Assembly: GCA_025358085.1 (NCBI GenBank)
Contig: JANYKT010000010.1
Coordinates: 1-64,000 of the forward strand
Source: Deltaproteobacteria bacterium
GTDB lineage: Bacteria; Myxococcota; Myxococcia; Myxococcales; 40CM-4-68-19
DNA: 64,000 nucleotides
Direction: 5' to 3'
Under the pieces are notes generated by a model. It ran no database searches, had not been told where the DNA came from, and worked only from the letters and a program-made list of their open reading frames with translations. A program made the translations under genes and the position numbers. Shown here one piece after another: positions 42,083 through 50,605 of this stretch. Every line of letters begins with the position of its first letter. The stretch's first letter is position 1.

Positions 42083-42136
42083 TGCACGGCTCGGAACGCC
42101 CTGATAAGTTTGCTTCCACTCTGTAAACATTCTTGC

Positions 42137-43582
42137 ATGGACCGAAACAGCACAGTCCTGGTGGCCCTGCGCCACGACGCGCAGCGAACTGCGCTCGTCG
42201 CCATGCTCGATCAGCGGCACTCCTACAAGGTCCTGCTGGCGAAATCGGCCGCCGAAGCCAGGACCATCATCGACGAAGCGCACGTCGACTTGATGCTGAT
42301 CGACGATGGCCAGGGCTTCGAAGGCTGCAGCGTCCTCGCCCAGCTTCGGCTCTCCAATCCCGAAATAGTCCGCGTGCTGGTGCTGCCGGAGACTTCCGAG
42401 CCGGGGCGAAAAGCAGTCTCGGAAGCAGCGGTCTATCAGTTCCTTCGCCGGCCGCTCGACGCCGAACAGGCGAGCCTCGTGGTCAAGCGTGGCCTCGAGG
42501 CTCGCGAGCTTGCCCGCCGCCATCGCCTGCTCTCGCGCGAGTTCAAGATCTCGGACGACGCTTCGATCCTTGCATTGGGCCAAGGCTACCAGCTCCGTCC
42601 CGAGAGCCAGCGCTTCGAGAAGCTGGTCTACGTGAGCGAGCGCATGTCGGCGGTGTGCGACCTCGCGCGGACTTCCGCCAAGACCCAGTTGCCCATTCTC
42701 ATCCAGGGCGAGACGGGCACCGGCAAGGAACTGCTCGCGCGCGCGGTGCACTACAATTCGACCCGGCGGGCGAGCCCGCTCCTGGTGCAGAACTGCGGCG
42801 GTCTGCCTGATGAACTCCTGCAGTCCGAGCTGTTCGGCCACAAGCGCGGCGCCTTCACCGGCGCGGTGTCCGATCGTCTGGGCCTGTTCCGCGCAGCCGA
42901 CGGAGGCACCGTCTTCCTCGACGAGATCTCCGAGGTCTCGCCGTCGTTTCAGGTGAGCCTCTTGCGCTTCCTGCAAGATGGAGAGCTCAAGCCCCTGGGC
43001 TCCGACCGCACCATCACCGCCGACGTGCGCATCATCGCGGCCTCCAACCGGCCGCTGAAATCCCTGGTCGCAGCCGGAGAGTTCCGTCGCGATCTTTACT
43101 ATCGCTTGAAGGGCTTCGAACTCGAAGTGCCTTCGCTGCGCTCGCGGCCGGAGGACATTGCCGCCCTTGCCGAGTTCTTCGCCGCCAAGCACAGCGAGGC
43201 GATGGCGCGAAAGGTCCTCGGCATCTCCGCGAGTGCGCTGGAGCGGCTGACCGCATATGACTTTCCTGGAAACGTGCGCGAATTGGAGAACGAGATCCGC
43301 CGCATGGTCGTGCTCACGAACGACGGCGAGTACTTGACCACCCGCCACCTGCCGCAGTCCATCCTCGATGCCGTCGTGCGCCCTCCAACGCTGCGCTCCG
43401 GGCCGGCGGACATCTCTGGAAAGACTTTAAAGGACAAGGTCGAGAGCCTGGAGAAGAACCTGGTCCTGGAAACTCTTGGCCGCTTGCGCTGGAACCAGAG
43501 CCGCGCCGCTGACGAACTGGGCTTGTCCCGCGTTGGTCTCGCCAATAAAATCAAGCGCTACGGTCTCGACCGGGAGCCATGA
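42137..43582 (+). CDS. NtrC-family sigma-54-dependent response regulator (HoxA/HupR-like)
   Basis: Receiver-like N-terminus, GETGTGKELLARAVH, KRGAFTGA, Fis-type HTH C-terminus. Confidence 0.92.
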   Translation: MDRNSTVLVALRHDAQRTALVAMLDQRHSYKVLLAKSAAEARTIIDEAHVDLMLIDDGQGFEGCSVLAQLRLSNPEIVRVLVLPETSEPGRKAVSEAAVYQFLRRPLDAEQASLVVKRGLEARELARRHRLLSREFKISDDASILALGQGYQLRPESQRFEKLVYVSERMSAVCDLARTSAKTQLPILIQGETGTGKELLARAVHYNSTRRASPLLVQNCGGLPDELLQSELFGHKRGAFTGAVSDRLGLFRAADGGTVFLDEISEVSPSFQVSLLRFLQDGELKPLGSDRTITADVRIIAASNRPLKSLVAAGEFRRDLYYRLKGFELEVPSLRSRPEDIAALAEFFAAKHSEAMARKVLGISASALERLTAYDFPGNVRELENEIRRMVVLTNDGEYLTTRHLPQSILDAVVRPPTLRSGPADISGKTLKDKVESLEKNLVLETLGRLRWNQSRAADELGLSRVGLANKIKRYGLDREP

Positions 43583-43785
43583 TGACCACCGTCCTACAAT
43601 TTCCTCACGCGAGAGTGCGAAAGCCCGGTGAGCCGGCCCGCGAGCTGGGCCTGGGTCTGCTGGCGCAAACCCTTGGCGTGCGACGCGAGACGCTGAGCGG
43701 TCACTGGTGCAGCCGCTGTAATGGAATCTGGTACGGGTTCCTGCTCGAGGTCACCTGTCCCGTCTGCGCCAACCGGCATGGCTAG
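43579..43785 (+). CDS. small CxxC...CxxC protein (zinc ribbon / rubredoxin-like)
   Basis: HWCSRCNGIWYGFLLEVTCPVCANRHG; ATGA overlap with regulator stop. Confidence 0.7.
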   Translation: MMTTVLQFPHARVRKPGEPARELGLGLLAQTLGVRRETLSGHWCSRCNGIWYGFLLEVTCPVCANRHG

Positions 43786-43980: not shown

Positions 43981-44943
43981 ATGGCCAATCTTCTCTGGCT
44001 TCAAGGCGGAGCGTGTTCGGGAAATACGATGTCCTTCCTCAATGCCGAGGAACCGAGCGCGTGTGATCTCGTCACCGATTTCGGGATCAATATCCTCTGG
44101 CATCCTTCCCTGGGAATGGAGCTCGGCGACAATCTGCAGAAGCTGCTCAAGTCGTGCGCGAGCGGGCAGACGGCGCTCGACATTCTCGTCTTCGAGGGCA
44201 GCGTGGTGAACGCGCCGGGCGGCACCGGTGAATGGAACCGGTTCGCGGGCCGCGCAATGAAGGACTGGGTGCGGGACCTCTGCAAAGTGGCGACCTTTGT
44301 GGTCGCGGTCGGCGACTGCGCGACCTGGGGCGGGATTCCGGCCACCGCTCCGAACCCGTCGGAGAGCCAGGGATTGCAATTCCTCAAACGCAAAGCGGGC
44401 GGCTTCCTCGGTACGCAATACCGCTCGAAGGCCGGCCTGCCCGTCATCAACGTCCCGGGATGCCCGGCGCACCCGGACTGGATCACGCAGATCGTGGTGG
44501 CGGTCGCAACCGGCCGCGGCGGCGAGATTGCGCTCGACGACTTTCAGCGCCCGAAGACGTTCTTCACCAGCTTCACGCAGACGGGCTGCACGCGAAACAT
44601 GCACTTTGCATACAAGGTTTCGGCAACTGAGTTCGGCCAGCGCAAAGGCTGCTTGTTTTACGATCTGGGCTGCCGCGGGCCAATGACCCACTCGCCCTGC
44701 AATCGAATCCTCTGGAATCGGCAATCGTCGAAGACCCGCGCCGGTATGCCCTGCCTGGGATGCACCGAGCCTGAGTTTCCCTTCCAGGATCTCGCTCCTG
44801 GCACGGTCTTCAAGACACAGACCGTGATGGGCATTCCCAAGGACATGCCCACCGGCGTGGAGAAGTCGGGCTACATCAAGCTCACCTCGGCCGCGAAAGC
44901 TGCCTCCCCCAGATGGGCTGAGGAAGATCTCTTCGTCGTTTAA
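43981..44943 (+). CDS. hhyS: [NiFe]-hydrogenase small subunit, actinobacterial-type (group 1h-like)
   Basis: LLWLQGGACSGNTMSFLNAEEPSACDLVTDFG (CxxN in place of CxxC), VGDCATWGG, PGCPAHPDW, CLFYDLGCRGP, PCLGC; no Tat signal. Confidence 0.88.
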   Translation: MANLLWLQGGACSGNTMSFLNAEEPSACDLVTDFGINILWHPSLGMELGDNLQKLLKSCASGQTALDILVFEGSVVNAPGGTGEWNRFAGRAMKDWVRDLCKVATFVVAVGDCATWGGIPATAPNPSESQGLQFLKRKAGGFLGTQYRSKAGLPVINVPGCPAHPDWITQIVVAVATGRGGEIALDDFQRPKTFFTSFTQTGCTRNMHFAYKVSATEFGQRKGCLFYDLGCRGPMTHSPCNRILWNRQSSKTRAGMPCLGCTEPEFPFQDLAPGTVFKTQTVMGIPKDMPTGVEKSGYIKLTSAAKAASPRWAEEDLFVV

Positions 44944-45028: not shown

Positions 45029-46630
45029 ATGCCCTCAACTGCCGTGCAGACACTCGATATCTCGCCGGTCGGCCGCGTCGAAGGCGACCTCGACGTTCGC
45101 GTCGAGATCGAGAATGGCGTCGTCGTCAACGCGTGGACCCAGGCCGAGCTCTTCCGCGGCTTCGAGGTCATCCTCCGCGACAAGGATCCGCAGGCCGGAC
45201 TCGTGGTCACGCCGAGGGCGTGCGGCATCTGCGGCGCCTCCCACCTGACCTGCGCCGCCTGGGCGCTGGACACCGCCTGGAAGACCACGGTGCCGCGCAA
45301 TGCCATCCTGGCGCGGAACCTCGGGCAGATCGTCGAGTCGCTGCAGAGCCTGCCGCGGCATCACTACGGCTTGTTCATGATCGATTATACGAACAAGTGT
45401 TATTCGAAGTCGCCGTACTATGAAGAAGCCTTGAAGCGCTGGGCGCCGTTCACCGGCAAGAACTATGAGCTGGGCGTCACCATCTCCGGCCGCCCGGTCG
45501 AGATCTACGCGCTGCTCGGGGGACAGTGGCCCCACTCCAGCTACATGGTTCCCGGCGGCGTCATGTGCGCGCCGACGCTCACTGATGTGACCCGCGCCTG
45601 GTCGATCCTCGAGCACTTCCGCCGCAACTGGATCGAGCCCTGCTGGCTGGGATGCAGCATGGAGCGCTACGAGCAGATCCGCTCCTACGACGACTTCATG
45701 GTCTGGCTGGACGAGAAGCCCGAGCACGCCGACTCGGACCTGGGCATGTTCTGGAGGATGAGCCAGGACATCGGCCTCGACAAGTATGGCCGCGGGCACA
45801 AGAAGTATCTCTCCTGGGGATATCTGCCTCACGAGGACAAGTATCAAAAGCCCACCATTGAAAACCGCAACGCTTCAGTGATCATGAAGAGCGGAGTGTT
45901 CGACGGCGCCGCCGGGACGCACAAGCTGATGGATCAGGGCATGACCCGCGAGGACACCAAGCACGCCTGGTACGATGAGGGCGCGCCGCAGCATCCGTTC
46001 GATCGCACCACCAGGCCCACGCAGAAGAACACCATCGATCATCAAGGCAAGTACTCGTGGGCCACCGCCGTCTCGCACCTGCAGGACGGTCGCCTCGAGG
46101 CTGGGCCGCTGGCCCGGCAGCTTGTGGCCGGCGGAACGCACGGAGAGAGCTGGCAGCACCACGACCCGCTCGTGCTCGATATGTACAAGAAGATGGGCGG
46201 CGCGAGCGTTCTGCTGCGCCACTTCGCCCGGATGCACGAGGGCGTAAAGCTCTATCGCGAAGCCGAGCGGATCCTGCGCGAGTTCAAGCTCAATGACCCC
46301 TGGTATGTGAAGCCGACGGAAAGGGACGGCCGCGGCTGGGGGGCCACCGAAGCCATTCGCGGCGCGCTCTGCCACTGGATCGAAGTGGAGAACGGCAAGA
46401 TCAAGAACTATCAGATCGTCGCGCCGACCACCTGGAACGTGGGCCCGCGTACGAGCGATGGAATCCGTGGCCCCATCGAAGAGGCGCTGATGGGCATTCC
46501 GATTGCGAATCCGAGCGACCCGGTTGAGGTGGGCCACGTCTGCCGCTCGTACGATTCGTGCTTGGTCTGCACTGTTCATGCGTACGATGCCAAGACGGGC
46601 AAGGAGCTTGCTCGTTTCCGTACCGCTTGA
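45029..46630 (+). CDS. hhyL: [NiFe]-hydrogenase large subunit, actinobacterial-type (group 1h-like)
   Basis: RACGICGASH (L1) and C-terminal SCLVCTVH followed by a short extension typical of a cleaved precursor. Confidence 0.9.
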   Translation: MPSTAVQTLDISPVGRVEGDLDVRVEIENGVVVNAWTQAELFRGFEVILRDKDPQAGLVVTPRACGICGASHLTCAAWALDTAWKTTVPRNAILARNLGQIVESLQSLPRHHYGLFMIDYTNKCYSKSPYYEEALKRWAPFTGKNYELGVTISGRPVEIYALLGGQWPHSSYMVPGGVMCAPTLTDVTRAWSILEHFRRNWIEPCWLGCSMERYEQIRSYDDFMVWLDEKPEHADSDLGMFWRMSQDIGLDKYGRGHKKYLSWGYLPHEDKYQKPTIENRNASVIMKSGVFDGAAGTHKLMDQGMTREDTKHAWYDEGAPQHPFDRTTRPTQKNTIDHQGKYSWATAVSHLQDGRLEAGPLARQLVAGGTHGESWQHHDPLVLDMYKKMGGASVLLRHFARMHEGVKLYREAERILREFKLNDPWYVKPTERDGRGWGATEAIRGALCHWIEVENGKIKNYQIVAPTTWNVGPRTSDGIRGPIEEALMGIPIANPSDPVEVGHVCRSYDSCLVCTVHAYDAKTGKELARFRTA

Positions 46631-46652: not shown

Positions 46653-46970
46653 ATGAGTGGAAGCGAGAAAGACAGCGCGCTTCTCCAGCTCATAACCCAG
46701 ACGCTGGAGACCGGTCTGCAGACGCAGACCGAGCCGTTTCCCGAGACGGAGGTGCTCTTCGGCGAGATCCTGACCCAGCTGCGGCATCTCGACCCCGACG
46801 ACCTCAAAAGCAAGCTCGTCATCGGCGGGTTCATCAATCATCCTTATGGGCCCGACAAGCAGCGTTGCCTCGAGTGCATGTATTTCCTGGTGCACCGGAA
46901 GTGGTGCGATCTCCCCGAGCTTTCAGTGCCGGTGGACGCCGAGTGGTGGTGCCGCCTCTGGCGGATTTAG
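46653..46970 (+). CDS. small four-Cys HiPIP-like protein, paralog 1
   Basis: CLECMYFLVHRKWCDLPELSVPVDAEWWCRLWRI: Cx2C-x9-C-x14-CxxW. Confidence 0.75.
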   Translation: MSGSEKDSALLQLITQTLETGLQTQTEPFPETEVLFGEILTQLRHLDPDDLKSKLVIGGFINHPYGPDKQRCLECMYFLVHRKWCDLPELSVPVDAEWWCRLWRI

Positions 46971-46980
46971 GGCCTCTGCG

Positions 46981-47286
46981 ATGGACGACAGCGCCGCCCG
47001 TGAAGAGGTCCGTTCGCTGCTGGCTTCAGGCCTCGTCACCGAGGTGTTTCCCCGCGCCGACAGCCAGGACGATGCCCTGGCGATCACGGCCCGGCTGCGC
47101 GGCGCGGACGGCCTGCGCCAGAAGCTGGTGATCGCGGGCTTCACGCTCGAGACCATCGTGTACGCGGGCATCGAACAACCCTGCTCGACCTGCATGTACT
47201 TCCTGGTCCATCGGCGCTACTGCGAGCTTTCGGAGCTCAAGCTTCCGGTCGAGCCCGAGTGGTCGTGCCGTCTGTGGCGGATGTAA
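46981..47286 (+). CDS. small four-Cys HiPIP-like protein, paralog 2
   Basis: CSTCMYFLVHRRYCELSELKLPVEPEWSCRLWRM; clear homology to the preceding ORF. Confidence 0.75.
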   Translation: MDDSAAREEVRSLLASGLVTEVFPRADSQDDALAITARLRGADGLRQKLVIAGFTLETIVYAGIEQPCSTCMYFLVHRRYCELSELKLPVEPEWSCRLWRM

Positions 47287-47313: not shown

Positions 47314-47811
47314 ATGATTGTCGTGATTGGCTGCGGAAACCTGAATCGCTCCGACGATGGGGTCGGAGTCGAGGTGATCAGGGCACTGCAGGCGCGAGCG
47401 GCCAGCCGCGCCGACTTGACTCGCCCGCGGCCCGAGGCGCGCTTCCTCGACGCGGGGACCGACGGCATGGCGGTGCTGTTCGCTGCGCGGGGCTGCTCGA
47501 CCCTGATCGTCGTCGACGCGAGCCGGAGCGGAGGGACGCCGGGCTCCATCTTCGAGGGGCCGGGGCAGGAGTTTGAGCAGCCCCACCAGGCGGCGTTGAA
47601 TCTGCACGACTTTCGCTGGGACAACGCGCTGCACGCGGGCCGGCAGATTTTCCGCGAGGCGTTTCCGCGCGACGTGATCGTGATCTTGATCGAGGTGCGC
47701 TCTCTCGCTTTGGGCCTGGGCCTCTCCCCGGAGGTCCGGGAAGCCGCGGTCAAGGTTTGCGATCGGGTCGAGGAGCTGATCGTCGCACGCGGAACGGGGC
47801 CGGCCAGGTGA
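47314..47811 (+). CDS. hydrogenase maturation protease (HyaD/HoxW-type)
   Basis: IVVIGCGNLNRSDDGVGVEVI N-terminus; FLDAGTDGMAV. Confidence 0.9.
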   Translation: MIVVIGCGNLNRSDDGVGVEVIRALQARAASRADLTRPRPEARFLDAGTDGMAVLFAARGCSTLIVVDASRSGGTPGSIFEGPGQEFEQPHQAALNLHDFRWDNALHAGRQIFREAFPRDVIVILIEVRSLALGLGLSPEVREAAVKVCDRVEELIVARGTGPAR

Positions 47812-48131
47812 GCGCCGAAGAAGCCACGGTCGTCCTGAAGCGCGGGGCGCTCTGCTTCAGCAAGAGCGACATCGATCGGTTTTTCCCCGGCATCGACGCG
47901 GTCGTGCTGCTCCGCGACGGGGACGCGCTGGTGATCCTGCCCGTGGTGGCGGCTGCCGCCGGCGGCTATCTGCTCAAGCAGCGCAATCTCAAAGGCGACC
48001 GGATCGCCCATGCCGCCGGCTTCCTGCGCGGCTTTGGAATCGACGACGAGCCCGAGCGCTCCTGCACTGCCGGGTGGAGCGCGGAGCGGGCGGCCTTGGT
48101 GATCCCTGCGTTTTTCAGTGTGCAAACTTAG
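47808..48131 (+). CDS. hypothetical protein, hydrogenase-operon associated
   Basis: GTG start overlapping protease stop (GTGA); 107 aa. Confidence 0.65.
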   Translation: MSAEEATVVLKRGALCFSKSDIDRFFPGIDAVVLLRDGDALVILPVVAAAAGGYLLKQRNLKGDRIAHAAGFLRGFGIDDEPERSCTAGWSAERAALVIPAFFSVQT

Positions 48132-48139: not shown

Positions 48140-48247
48140 ATGCATACAGACTAGACACCCCTGCTTCGCGCTCGTAGCTTGCCGCGTGAAGGCTTGTCCA
48201 GACTGGAAAGTCGGCCAGCCGTCTCGTCGAGGAAGAGGAGTTTTTCC

Positions 48248-49270
48248 GTGGATACAGAGCGGGTCGATTCCGAGCTTCGCGCCGCTCTCAGCGCGGCTGA
48301 CGACGAGAGCGCGTCGCCGGGCGAGCGCGCGGAGATGTTGATGGAGATCGCGATGGGCTTGCAGAAAAAGCCCAAGTCTCCCGATCAGCTGCTCGCGGCG
48401 GTGGCTCTCTATGAGCGCGCGCAGGGCCTCTGTCCGGCGGAGCAGCGGCTCCTGCACGCACGCATCACCGCGCGCAAGGGCACCGCGCTGCAGGCGCTTC
48501 CGGCGCGGCCCGACCAGGGGCCGAGAGCAAACGATGCTCTCGAACAGGCGAGCGCGGCTTACGAGAGCGTCCTGCCGATCCTGCGCGAGTTGGGCAAACC
48601 CGAAGAGCAGGCCGAGGTGGAGATGAACCTGGGGCTGGTGCTCCAGACGCTCGCGGGCGTGAACCGGGCGCGCATGACCGACGCCATCGCGGCCTACCAG
48701 CGCGCGCTGCGGATCTTCGATCGCGTCCGCTTCCCGCGCGAGTTTGCCATTCTGCAAAACAATCTGGCGACGGCGTTCCTCGCCATGCCCTTCACCGACG
48801 AGCGCGGAAAGATGCGCGAGGCGCTGGCCGTCGCGGCATTCGAGGAGGGGCTGCAAGTGGTCACCTTCATCGACCATCCCGCCGAGTACGCCATGCTGCA
48901 GAACAACCTGGGCAATGCCCTCCAGTACGCCTCATCGAGCCACGCAGTCGAAAACAATCTCCGCGCGCTCGAAGCCTACGACGAGGCGCTCAAGGTCCGC
49001 ACCCGCGAGGCGATGCCGCTGGAGTACGCCAACACCGTTTCGAATCGCGCGAACTGTCTCTGGAACATGCCCGACGACGTCGCCGCGCCAGAGGCGGGAA
49101 ACCGCCGGAACCAGGTCGTGGCGCGCACCGCCTACGCAGAAGCGCGCGCCATCTTCGCGGCCCACGGCGAAGTGGAAAAAGCGCGAATCGTCGGCGAGGC
49201 CTGCGATCAACTCGAGCGCGAGATCCTCTCCCAGGCGACGGACGAGCCTGCGAGCCTGCACTCCACCTGA
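48248..49270 (+). CDS. tetratricopeptide-repeat-like protein
   Basis: Repeated helical units (QAEVEMNLGLVLQTLA, AILQNNLATAF, AMLQNNLGNALQYA); GTG start after AGGAAGAGGAG. Confidence 0.75.
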   Translation: MDTERVDSELRAALSAADDESASPGERAEMLMEIAMGLQKKPKSPDQLLAAVALYERAQGLCPAEQRLLHARITARKGTALQALPARPDQGPRANDALEQASAAYESVLPILRELGKPEEQAEVEMNLGLVLQTLAGVNRARMTDAIAAYQRALRIFDRVRFPREFAILQNNLATAFLAMPFTDERGKMREALAVAAFEEGLQVVTFIDHPAEYAMLQNNLGNALQYASSSHAVENNLRALEAYDEALKVRTREAMPLEYANTVSNRANCLWNMPDDVAAPEAGNRRNQVVARTAYAEARAIFAAHGEVEKARIVGEACDQLEREILSQATDEPASLHST

Positions 49271-49288: not shown

Positions 49289-49504
49289 ATGATGACGTCG
49301 AATCCTGGAATTGCCTTGGTCGCGCTGGGTTTCGCGTTCCTCGCAGCGCTGGGCGGCGGCGCTCTGAGCGGCATGCTGATCGGGGGAAAGGACATTCCCA
49401 GGCCGCTCGCGGCCATGATGGGAGCCTTCTTCGGGCCGCTCGCCGGCTTTCTCGGCACCATCGTCGGACTTGGCCTCTCCCTGGTCTTCTTCCGGGGAGC
49501 CTGA
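49289..49504 (+). CDS. small hydrophobic glycine-rich membrane protein
   Basis: 71 aa, two TM segments with GxxxG/Gly-zipper pattern. Confidence 0.65.
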   Translation: MMTSNPGIALVALGFAFLAALGGGALSGMLIGGKDIPRPLAAMMGAFFGPLAGFLGTIVGLGLSLVFFRGA

Positions 49505-49505
49505 G

Positions 49506-49730
49506 ATGTGGGACATGGCGGTGAATACCTCGGTACTGTTTTTCAAGGGAAAGCTCTTCCTGCACAATGGAAAGGTCTTTGCCCAGATTGGCCTCGGCCT
49601 CGGCGTGACCGCGCTGCTCTTCCTCGGCGTGCGCGCCGCTGGCGTTCCTCCCCTGGCGGCATCCGGTGTCGCGGGGTTCGTGGGCGGCGGGCTCCAGCCG
49701 TGGCTCTTCCGCAACCTCAAGTACCTCTGA
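49506..49730 (+). CDS. small hydrophobic membrane protein
   Basis: 74 aa with TM segment QIGLGLGVTALLFLGV and GVAGFVGGGLQPWLF. Confidence 0.65.
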   Translation: MWDMAVNTSVLFFKGKLFLHNGKVFAQIGLGLGVTALLFLGVRAAGVPPLAASGVAGFVGGGLQPWLFRNLKYL

Positions 49731-49738
49731 GTCCCTCT

Positions 49739-50605
49739 TTGACCACCTCCTCCGAAGCTGCTCCCGCCCCGGATCTTGACGGACTCCTGCGCGACATCGG
49801 TCGCCTCGAGTCCGTCTTCGAAACCTGGGACGAGACGCAACGCCTGGCGGTCACGGCGCACTGCCGCGCCATCGAAGCGCTGCACGGCGAGGCGCTGCGG
49901 CGACTCGTTCGCTCACTCAAGGGCGAGCCGGCGGCGCTGAGGGCGATGAAGGACGCGCTCGAAGACGAGGTGATCTACGCGGTCCTGCGCAAGCACCAGA
50001 TCGTTCGTGCCAGCCTGGTCGAGCGGGTCGAGGCTGCGCTCACCGGGGTCCGCCCCATGCTGGCTTCGCACGGCGGCGACGTGGAGCTGATCAAGATCGA
50101 TCCCCCCTCGGTGCAGGTACGCTTCACCGGAGCCTGCGATGGCTGCCCGTCGTCCGCCTTGACGTTTCACGAGGGAGTGAAGAAGGCCATCGAGGAGGCG
50201 TGCCCGGAGATCACCCATATCCAGCAGCTCAAGGGCATGGGCAACAGCCCTGGCCAAAGCGCGAGCAACGCGATGCAAAGCCCCTTCGCGGGAATTGGTC
50301 TTTGGCGCTTCGCGATCAAGCTGGCCGACGTTCCCGAAGGCGGCGTGCGGGGCATCGAAGTCGACGGCGAAAATTTGCTGATTGCGAAACGCGCCGCCCA
50401 GGTGACCTGCTTCCGCAACGCGTGCGCGCATCTCGGACTGCCGCTGCACGAGGGAGCAGTCACGGATGGGATCCTCGCCTGCCCGCACCACGACTTTGAA
50501 TACGACCTGGCGACCGGCGAATGCCTCACCGCGCCGTCGGTCCAATTACAGCCGCACCCGGTGCGCGTCAGCGGCCACGACGTAGAAGTCAGGATGGCCA
50601 GGTAA
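49739..50605 (+). CDS. NifU-like domain plus Rieske [2Fe-2S] fusion protein
   Basis: RPMLASHGGDVELIKI...GACDGCPSS (NifU C-terminal domain); CAHLGLPLHEGAVTDGILACPHH (Rieske). Probable TTG start. Confidence 0.85.
   Translation: MTTSSEAAPAPDLDGLLRDIGRLESVFETWDETQRLAVTAHCRAIEALHGEALRRLVRSLKGEPAALRAMKDALEDEVIYAVLRKHQIVRASLVERVEAALTGVRPMLASHGGDVELIKIDPPSVQVRFTGACDGCPSSALTFHEGVKKAIEEACPEITHIQQLKGMGNSPGQSASNAMQSPFAGIGLWRFAIKLADVPEGGVRGIEVDGENLLIAKRAAQVTCFRNACAHLGLPLHEGAVTDGILACPHHDFEYDLATGECLTAPSVQLQPHPVRVSGHDVEVRMAR

What the first reader, a model, noticed from the sequence alone, without database searches (positions are those of the whole stretch)
46653..47286. Two tandem paralogous small four-Cys proteins resembling minimal cytoplasmic HiPIPs, directly after hhyL
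Both ORFs (105 and 101 aa) end in C-x2-C-M-Y-F-L-V-H-R-x2-C-x14-C-R-L-W-[IM], like the HiPIP signature Cx2C...C...GWCxxW but with a shorter second spacing and no export signal. They lie between the hydrogenase large subunit and its protease. Inference: paired Fe-S electron carriers (possibly a heterodimer) that accept electrons from HhyS, which would explain how a soluble group 1h enzyme couples to the respiratory chain.
Basis: partly seen in the sequence, partly recalled or inferred. Interest (0 to 1): 0.8.

Follow-up and report, generated by a model that had tools for sequence, protein, structure and literature searches.

The report
Paired HiPIP-like proteins of Huc hydrogenase
Two small paired proteins, probably carrying iron-sulfur clusters, sit next to an air-hydrogen-scavenging hydrogenase in one branch of that enzyme family and appear where the quinone-delivery subunit of the studied version is missing, which suggests a different, testable route for feeding hydrogen's electrons into respiration.

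Summary
Two tandem paralogues (A, 46653-46970, 105 aa; B, 46981-47286, 101 aa; 43% identical) lie between the hydrogenase large subunit and its protease. They belong to an unnamed family found here in 80 further genomes (Alpha- and Gammaproteobacteria, some Acidobacteriota). The spacing C-x2-C-x9-C-x14-C is almost invariant, and hucL lies directly upstream in 79 of 79 testable loci.

One premise is wrong: the enzyme is group 2a (Huc), not group 1h.

The HiPIP idea holds up partly. Confident AlphaFold models rank HiPIPs first in Foldseek, though not significantly. PF01355 is the Pfam family matched by most members. Profile comparison beats Cys-preserving shuffles in 997 of 1000. Yet no member tested reaches the family's formal criteria, and there is no export signal.

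New here: the Huc clade with A/B lacks HucM (DUF1641), the menaquinone-conduit subunit. DUF1641 is absent from 61 of 61 A/B genomes; HucM accompanies four A/B-less Huc loci. This rests on a single change on the HucS tree, and two Huc loci have neither.

A HiPIP beside the Acidithiobacillus ferrooxidans group 2a genes was already proposed as the electron link (PMC7735108). Iron-sulfur content and role are untested; a maturation factor is the main rival.

The parts
46653..46970 (+). Protein A, 105 aa: two N-terminal helices, then a helix ending in G-F, then the four-Cys HiPIP-like core C72-x2-C75-x9-C85-x14-C100-x2-W103
   Evidence: Translation; conserved in 80 genomes; AlphaFold2 pLDDT 94; Foldseek rank 1 = HiPIP 3hip, E 0.88
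46981..47286 (+). Protein B, 101 aa paralogue of A: C68-x2-C71-x9-C81-x14-C96-x2-W99
   Evidence: Translation; 43% identical to A; AlphaFold2 pLDDT 96.6; Foldseek rank 1 = HiPIP 3h31, E 0.66
43981..44943 (+). [quoted passage not shown]
   Evidence: PDB 7uur HucS E 8e-156, versus group 1h HofK 5aa5 E 1e-34
45029..46630 (+). [quoted passage not shown]
   Evidence: PDB 7uus HucL E 1.2e-185; PF00374
47314..47811 (+). hydrogenase maturation protease (HycI/HupD type)
   Evidence: PF01750 and TIGR00072 above cut-off
47808..48131 (+). conserved ~105 aa protein after the protease, present in nearly all Huc loci examined, HucM-type included (start codon uncertain)
   Evidence: phmmer hits in 84 loci
48179..49270 (+). 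TPR-repeat protein of the Huc cluster (start codon uncertain)
   Evidence: Syntenic homologues in most A/B loci with sequence there; weak TPR_12 match
49289..49504 (+). small hydrophobic protein, asr0689 family; candidate membrane partner in HucM-less loci
   Evidence: NCBIfam NF052670 E 1.5e-7, below the curated cut-off; in most A/B loci, not detected in five A/B-less Huc loci
49515..49730 (+). second small hydrophobic protein of the cluster
   Evidence: In most A/B loci; not detected in five A/B-less Huc loci
49736..50605 (+). hucE, NifU plus Rieske [2Fe-2S] protein (start codon uncertain)
   Evidence: PF01106 and PF00355 above cut-off; Rieske type marks group 2a in PMC6883350
50602..51813 (+). 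NHL-repeat protein of the Huc cluster
   Evidence: PF01436 E 2.6e-27
43579..43785 (+). 68-aa zinc-ribbon-like protein directly upstream of hucS, the position HucM holds in Mycobacterium
   Evidence: Two C-x2-C pairs; homologues in 73 loci of the clade, window included; no Pfam match

Best explanation
A and B are cytoplasmic proteins with a HiPIP-like four-Cys core. They most likely bind one Fe-S cluster each and act as electron carriers for a HucM-less clade of group 2a (Huc) [NiFe] hydrogenases. In the characterised mycobacterial Huc, HucM forms a hydrophobic tube that brings menaquinone to the distal cluster. In this clade HucM is absent. I propose that A (with B in most members) takes electrons from the distal cluster of HucS and passes them to HucE (Rieske) and/or a membrane-bound acceptor, possibly through the two small hydrophobic proteins of the cluster, to the quinone pool. 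Shown here: the conserved pair, invariant Cys spacing, strict linkage to one Huc clade, absence of DUF1641/HucM from those genomes, and a statistical resemblance to HiPIP. Inferred: the Fe-S cluster, its potential, the order of electron flow, and the functional replacement of HucM.
For: Enzyme is Huc. Pair conserved and syntenic; across 50 genomes the copies lie mostly in tandem pairs, and 12 of 12 plasmids with A/B are the 12 with HucS at or above 80% identity, while five plasmids with 65-71% HucS lack A/B. HiPIP-like core: HiPIPs rank first in Foldseek for both models; PF01355 is the Pfam family hit by most members, 7 of 86, best E 0.14; profile-profile P 0.0018 for A+B and 0.00044 for A alone, with the Cys and the C-terminal aromatics in register in the A+B alignment; 3 of 1000 Cys-fixed column shuffles reach that score; relaxed HiPIP pattern in 74 of 86. 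HucM identified as DUF1641; DUF1641 absent from 61 of 61 A/B genomes; HucM present without A/B in Mycobacterium, Thermus, Sulfobacillus and an Acidobacteriota genome. Literature: a putative HiPIP beside hupLS in At. ferrooxidans is more abundant during anaerobic growth on H2 (PMC7735108); that enzyme purified as two subunits only (same paper, citing Fischer 1996).
Against: No Foldseek match is significant (best E 0.66). Window proteins themselves match no Pfam or NCBIfam model. The classical HiPIP G-[YW]-C signature is met by none of 86. The B-only profile aligns only around the first C-x2-C. Presence of A/B and absence of HucM map to one change on the HucS tree, so they are not independent replicates. 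Two Huc loci have neither HucM nor A/B locally (Hymenobacter L090, G019 L097). Known HiPIPs work at about +50 to +500 mV (general knowledge), awkward for reducing ubiquinone unless the potential is low.
Confidence: 0.5

Rival explanations
1. A and B are hydrogenase-specific maturation or assembly factors, for instance delivering or protecting Fe-S clusters of HucS or holding pre-HucL for the protease, as rubredoxin-like HoxR/HupI proteins do for group 1d enzymes.
For: Genes lie between hucL and its protease gene; neighbours are maturation genes; At. ferrooxidans hydrogenase purified as two subunits without a small third one (PMC7735108); other Huc clades do without A/B.
Against: HiPIP-like rather than rubredoxin-like motif: one C-x2-C, not two. 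HucM-type Huc loci share the protease, TPR, NifU-Rieske and NHL genes but lack A/B, so A/B are not part of the common maturation set.
Confidence: 0.3
2. A and B are structural zinc-binding subunits or adaptors that tie HucSL to the membrane or organise its oligomer in place of HucM, with no redox role.
For: Complementary distribution with HucM (against 72, 83); highly conserved polar and turn residues H81, R82, P88, E89 in A; four Cys would also suit zinc.
Against: Resemblance to HiPIP beyond Cys spacing; no long C-terminal coiled coil like that of HucM in the AlphaFold models; Beijerinckiaceae-type loci keep A only.
Confidence: 0.13
3. They are zinc-binding regulators or sensors of the hydrogenase with no direct part in electron transfer or maturation.
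For: Small four-Cys proteins near a sigma-54-type regulator gene.
Against: Invariant position inside the structural operon next to hucL in 79 of 79 testable loci; no consistent match to a DNA-binding family.
Confidence: 0.05

Closest known systems
High-potential iron-sulfur proteins (HiPIP, PF01355)
   Same: C-x2-C ... C ... C-x2-[W/Y/F] with an aromatic after the first Cys pair and an aromatic-ended helix about 11-13 residues before it; little regular secondary structure in the Cys core; HiPIPs rank first in Foldseek and HIPIP is the Pfam family with most member matches.
   Different: No export signal; an extra N-terminal part with two helices; W or S where HiPIPs have G-[YW] before the last Cys; no member tested reaches the Pfam cut-off; linked to a cytoplasmic hydrogenase.
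Putative HiPIP DN052_04130 next to hupLS of Acidithiobacillus ferrooxidans (PMC7735108)
   Same: Group 2a cluster, next to hupLS; with its neighbour 04125 probably the A/B pair by locus-tag order (inference); proposed there as the missing electron link to ubiquinone.
   Different: Sequence not available here, so orthology was not tested; the paper treats one gene and neither the pair, its clade-wide conservation nor the lack of HucM.
HucM of mycobacterial Huc (DUF1641, PF07849)
   Same: Extra small subunit of a group 2a cluster thought to link the enzyme to respiration; complementary distribution with A/B.
   Different: No sequence similarity; HucM is Cys-poor, helical, forms a membrane-touching tube for menaquinone (PMC10017518); A/B are four-Cys proteins.
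HucE / HhyE (NifU with Rieske or rubredoxin-type domain)
   Same: Fe-S proteins encoded downstream of hydrogenase genes and needed for H2 uptake in M. smegmatis (PMC6883350).
   Different: Unrelated sequence; HucE is encoded in addition to A/B in the same cluster.

Membership tests
Group 1h [NiFe] hydrogenase (Hhy) | Small and large subunits closest to HhyS/HhyL (HofK/HofG) | tested here: not met
   HofK 123 bits against HucS 521 bits; HucL best by far
Group 2a [NiFe] hydrogenase (Huc) | Subunits closest to HucS/HucL | tested here: met
   7uur E 8e-156; 7uus E 1e-185
Group 2a [NiFe] hydrogenase (Huc) | HucE with NifU plus Rieske domain in the cluster | tested here: met
   PF01106 and PF00355 above cut-off
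Group 2a [NiFe] hydrogenase, mycobacterial type | HucM (DUF1641) subunit | tested here: not met
   No DUF1641 in the window's genome nor in 60 other A/B genomes
HiPIP (PF01355) | Score above the Pfam gathering cut-off | tested here: not met
   No hit for A or B; 7 of 86 members match weakly, best E 0.14
HiPIP (PF01355) | Signature C-x(6,9)-[LIVM]-x3-G-[YW]-C-x2-[FYW] (PROSITE-type, recalled) | tested here: not met
   0 of 86, against 31 of 35 HiPIPs; the version with W allowed for G fits 74 of 86
HiPIP (PF01355) | Four Cys in C-x2-C-xn-C-xn-C order with HiPIP-compatible spacing | tested here: met
   profile alignment puts the Cys in register
HiPIP (PF01355) | HiPIP fold | tested here: inconclusive
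   Rank 1 for both models but E 0.66 and 0.88, TM normalised by target 0.42-0.47
HiPIP (PF01355) | [4Fe-4S]3+/2+ cluster of high potential | not testable with these tools
   Needs purified protein
HiPIP (PF01355) | Tat export to the periplasm | tested here: not met
   No signal peptide in A or B by reading the sequence; N-terminus modelled as part of the folded domain
Rubredoxin-like maturation factor (HoxR/HupI) | Two C-x2-C knuckles | tested here: not met
   Only one C-x2-C; third and fourth Cys 14 residues apart

The most novel reading that the evidence does not exclude
Group 2a hydrogenases come in at least two wiring types. One carries HucM and reduces menaquinone inside the complex. The other, in Proteobacteria and some Acidobacteriota, has lost or never had HucM and uses a pair of dedicated cytoplasmic HiPIP-fold proteins, which would be unusual as HiPIP-type carriers working inside the cytoplasm, to deliver H2-derived electrons to the quinone pool.
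Probability: 0.35. Interest if true: 0.75.

Novelty: new variant of a known kind. Interest (0 to 1): 0.52.

Why it matters
How group 2a hydrogenases hand electrons to the respiratory chain is solved only for the HucM-bearing mycobacterial enzyme. A clade found in rhizobia, roseobacters, sphingomonads, hyphomicrobia, marine Gammaproteobacteria and some Acidobacteriota lacks HucM, so its coupling is open. A strictly linked, probably redox-active pair gives a concrete gene target. A HiPIP-type fold working in the cytoplasm would also be unusual, since characterised HiPIPs are periplasmic.

Tried and rejected
Group 1h assignment: rejected. Sequence search of the PDB with B alone and with the family profile: no meaningful match. 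Zinc-ribbon or rubredoxin families: no NCBIfam match of note and no such Pfam family among the hits of more than one member. Obligate heterodimer: weakened, since L008, L033 and L052 have A with the protease directly after it, and L041 has a different Cys-rich protein in B's place. Strict rule that every Huc has either HucM or A/B: rejected, L090 and G019 have neither nearby; G019's DUF1641 proteins are long, distant and not in the huc cluster. G194 match to the profile (E 0.004, 34 residues) not accepted as a member; no four-Cys ORF was found there. Laying the whole genome in the Python box was not available.

Full report
Observation. The two ORFs exist as described: A at 46653-46970 (105 aa) and B at 46981-47286 (101 aa). 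A starts 22 bases after the hydrogenase large-subunit gene ends, B starts 10 bases after A ends, and the maturation protease follows at 47314. They are 43% identical and the genome has no other copy. Neither matches Pfam or NCBIfam, and B alone finds nothing in the PDB by sequence.

The hydrogenase is not group 1h. The small subunit matches HucS of Mycobacterium smegmatis at 521 bits (PDB 7uur) and the group 1h HofK at only 123 bits. The large subunit matches HucL at 1e-185. The accessory protein has NifU plus Rieske domains, the HucE type that PMC6883350 links to group 2a, whereas HhyE of group 1h has rubredoxin-like motifs.

Family and context. A scan of genome contigs gave 80 loci in Alpha- and Gammaproteobacteria and Acidobacteriota. 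In them the order is hucS-hucL-A-B-protease-TPR-two small hydrophobic proteins-hucE-NHL-hypF. In several Gammaproteobacteria the TPR-to-HucE part is divergent, upstream of hucS. hucL lies directly upstream of A in 79 of 79 loci with sequence there. Of the 80 loci, 75 have two copies, L062 has three and four have one. Three single-copy loci (L008, L033, L052) have A followed at once by the protease, and L041 has another Cys-rich protein in B's place. The Cys spacing is invariant apart from a few unresolved or divergent members. In 50 whole genomes the family appears as tandem pairs, with rare doubled clusters and single copies. Among plasmids, the 12 records with A/B are exactly the 12 whose HucS is at least 80% identical to the window's; the five with 65-71% HucS have none.

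HiPIP resemblance. AlphaFold2 gave confident models (mean pLDDT 94 and 96.6). In Foldseek against 350,542 PDB chains the first hit of each model is a HiPIP, a second HiPIP is third for B, but E-values are 0.66 and 0.88, so this is suggestive only. In Pfam the family hit by most members is HIPIP, 7 of 86, best E 0.14. I collected HiPIP sequences from genomes and from PDB entries and compared profiles. hhalign places the Cys and the C-terminal aromatics in register for A+B (P 0.0018); A alone gives P 0.00044, while B alone aligns only around the first C-x2-C. Shuffling all columns except the Cys reached the observed score in 3 of 1000 trials. A relaxed HiPIP pattern fits 74 of 86 members and no other ORF among 18,170 in these loci; the strict signature fits none. 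I therefore call the core HiPIP-like and do not file the proteins as HiPIPs.

HucM is missing where A/B are present. HucM is a DUF1641 protein: the gene before hucS on a Mycobacterium plasmid matches PDB 7uus_Q at 3e-34 and PF07849. HucM genes accompany Huc in Mycobacterium, Thermus and Sulfobacillus and in the Acidobacteriota genome G265; none of these loci has A/B. No HucM-like ORF occurs in any A/B locus, and no DUF1641 gene occurs in the window's genome or in 60 further A/B genomes, three of them Acidobacteriota. Two Huc loci have neither nearby (L090; G019/L097). On the HucS tree the A/B loci are separated from the others by one change with support 72, and the acidobacterial A/B loci sit among gammaproteobacterial ones, which suggests that the cluster travels as a unit. 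Because it is one change, the complementary pattern is a single evolutionary event, not repeated evidence; and DUF1641 is uncommon anyway, so its absence alone is weak.

Mechanism. Purified Huc works at about -80 to -160 mV and reduces menaquinone at its distal cluster through the HucM conduit (PMC10017518). Proteobacteria of this clade mostly respire with ubiquinone (general knowledge). The simplest model is that A, helped by B in most members, takes electrons from HucS and hands them to HucE or a membrane partner and on to the quinone pool. The weak point is the potential: most HiPIPs lie well above ubiquinone, so A/B would have to sit at the low end of the HiPIP range. The main rival is a maturation role, which gene position alone would equally allow.

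Prior art. PMC7735108 reports that a gene beside hupLS of At. ferrooxidans, DN052_04130, encodes a putative HiPIP that is more abundant in anaerobic growth on H2, and proposes it or the Rieske protein as the link to ubiquinone. Locus-tag order suggests that DN052_04130 and 04125 are A and B; I could not fetch the sequences. I found no other paper in the library with HiPIP and group 2a together, and no discussion of HucM's distribution. The open library lacks most subscription journals.

Verdict. A real, conserved, unnamed protein pair of HucM-less group 2a hydrogenases with a probable HiPIP-like core.

Noticed in passing
43579-43785: Small zinc-ribbon-like protein (GHWCSRCxGIWYG..CPxCGNRHG) directly upstream of hucS, conserved in 73 loci of this clade (window included) and unnamed in Pfam; it occupies the position of HucM.
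   Followed up: partly
49289-49504 and 49515-49730: Two small hydrophobic proteins (first one asr0689-like, a family named from the cyanobacterial extended hyp operon) are in most A/B loci but were not detected in five A/B-less Huc loci; candidate membrane link.
   Followed up: partly
L041 8297-9163: A Cys-rich protein (DCRNGCDYCCSF motif, YkgJ-like by eye) replaces B between A and the protease in one gammaproteobacterial locus.
   Followed up: no
L015 8272-8583 and L025 2289-2531: B is replaced by, or evolved into, a strongly divergent paralogue (CDNCIYFLARREWCDLPELNIPVDPDWYCDLWRV).
   Followed up: no
L097 (G019:C489): A same-phylum Huc cluster sister to the A/B clade with neither A/B nor HucM nearby; the same genome has an exported HiPIP elsewhere (L085).
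   Followed up: partly
L062 7989-9032: Three tandem copies of the family in one Kangiella MAG.
   Followed up: no
42110-43582: NtrC-type sigma-54 regulator gene upstream of the cluster, probably a HupR/HoxA-like regulator of huc.
   Followed up: no
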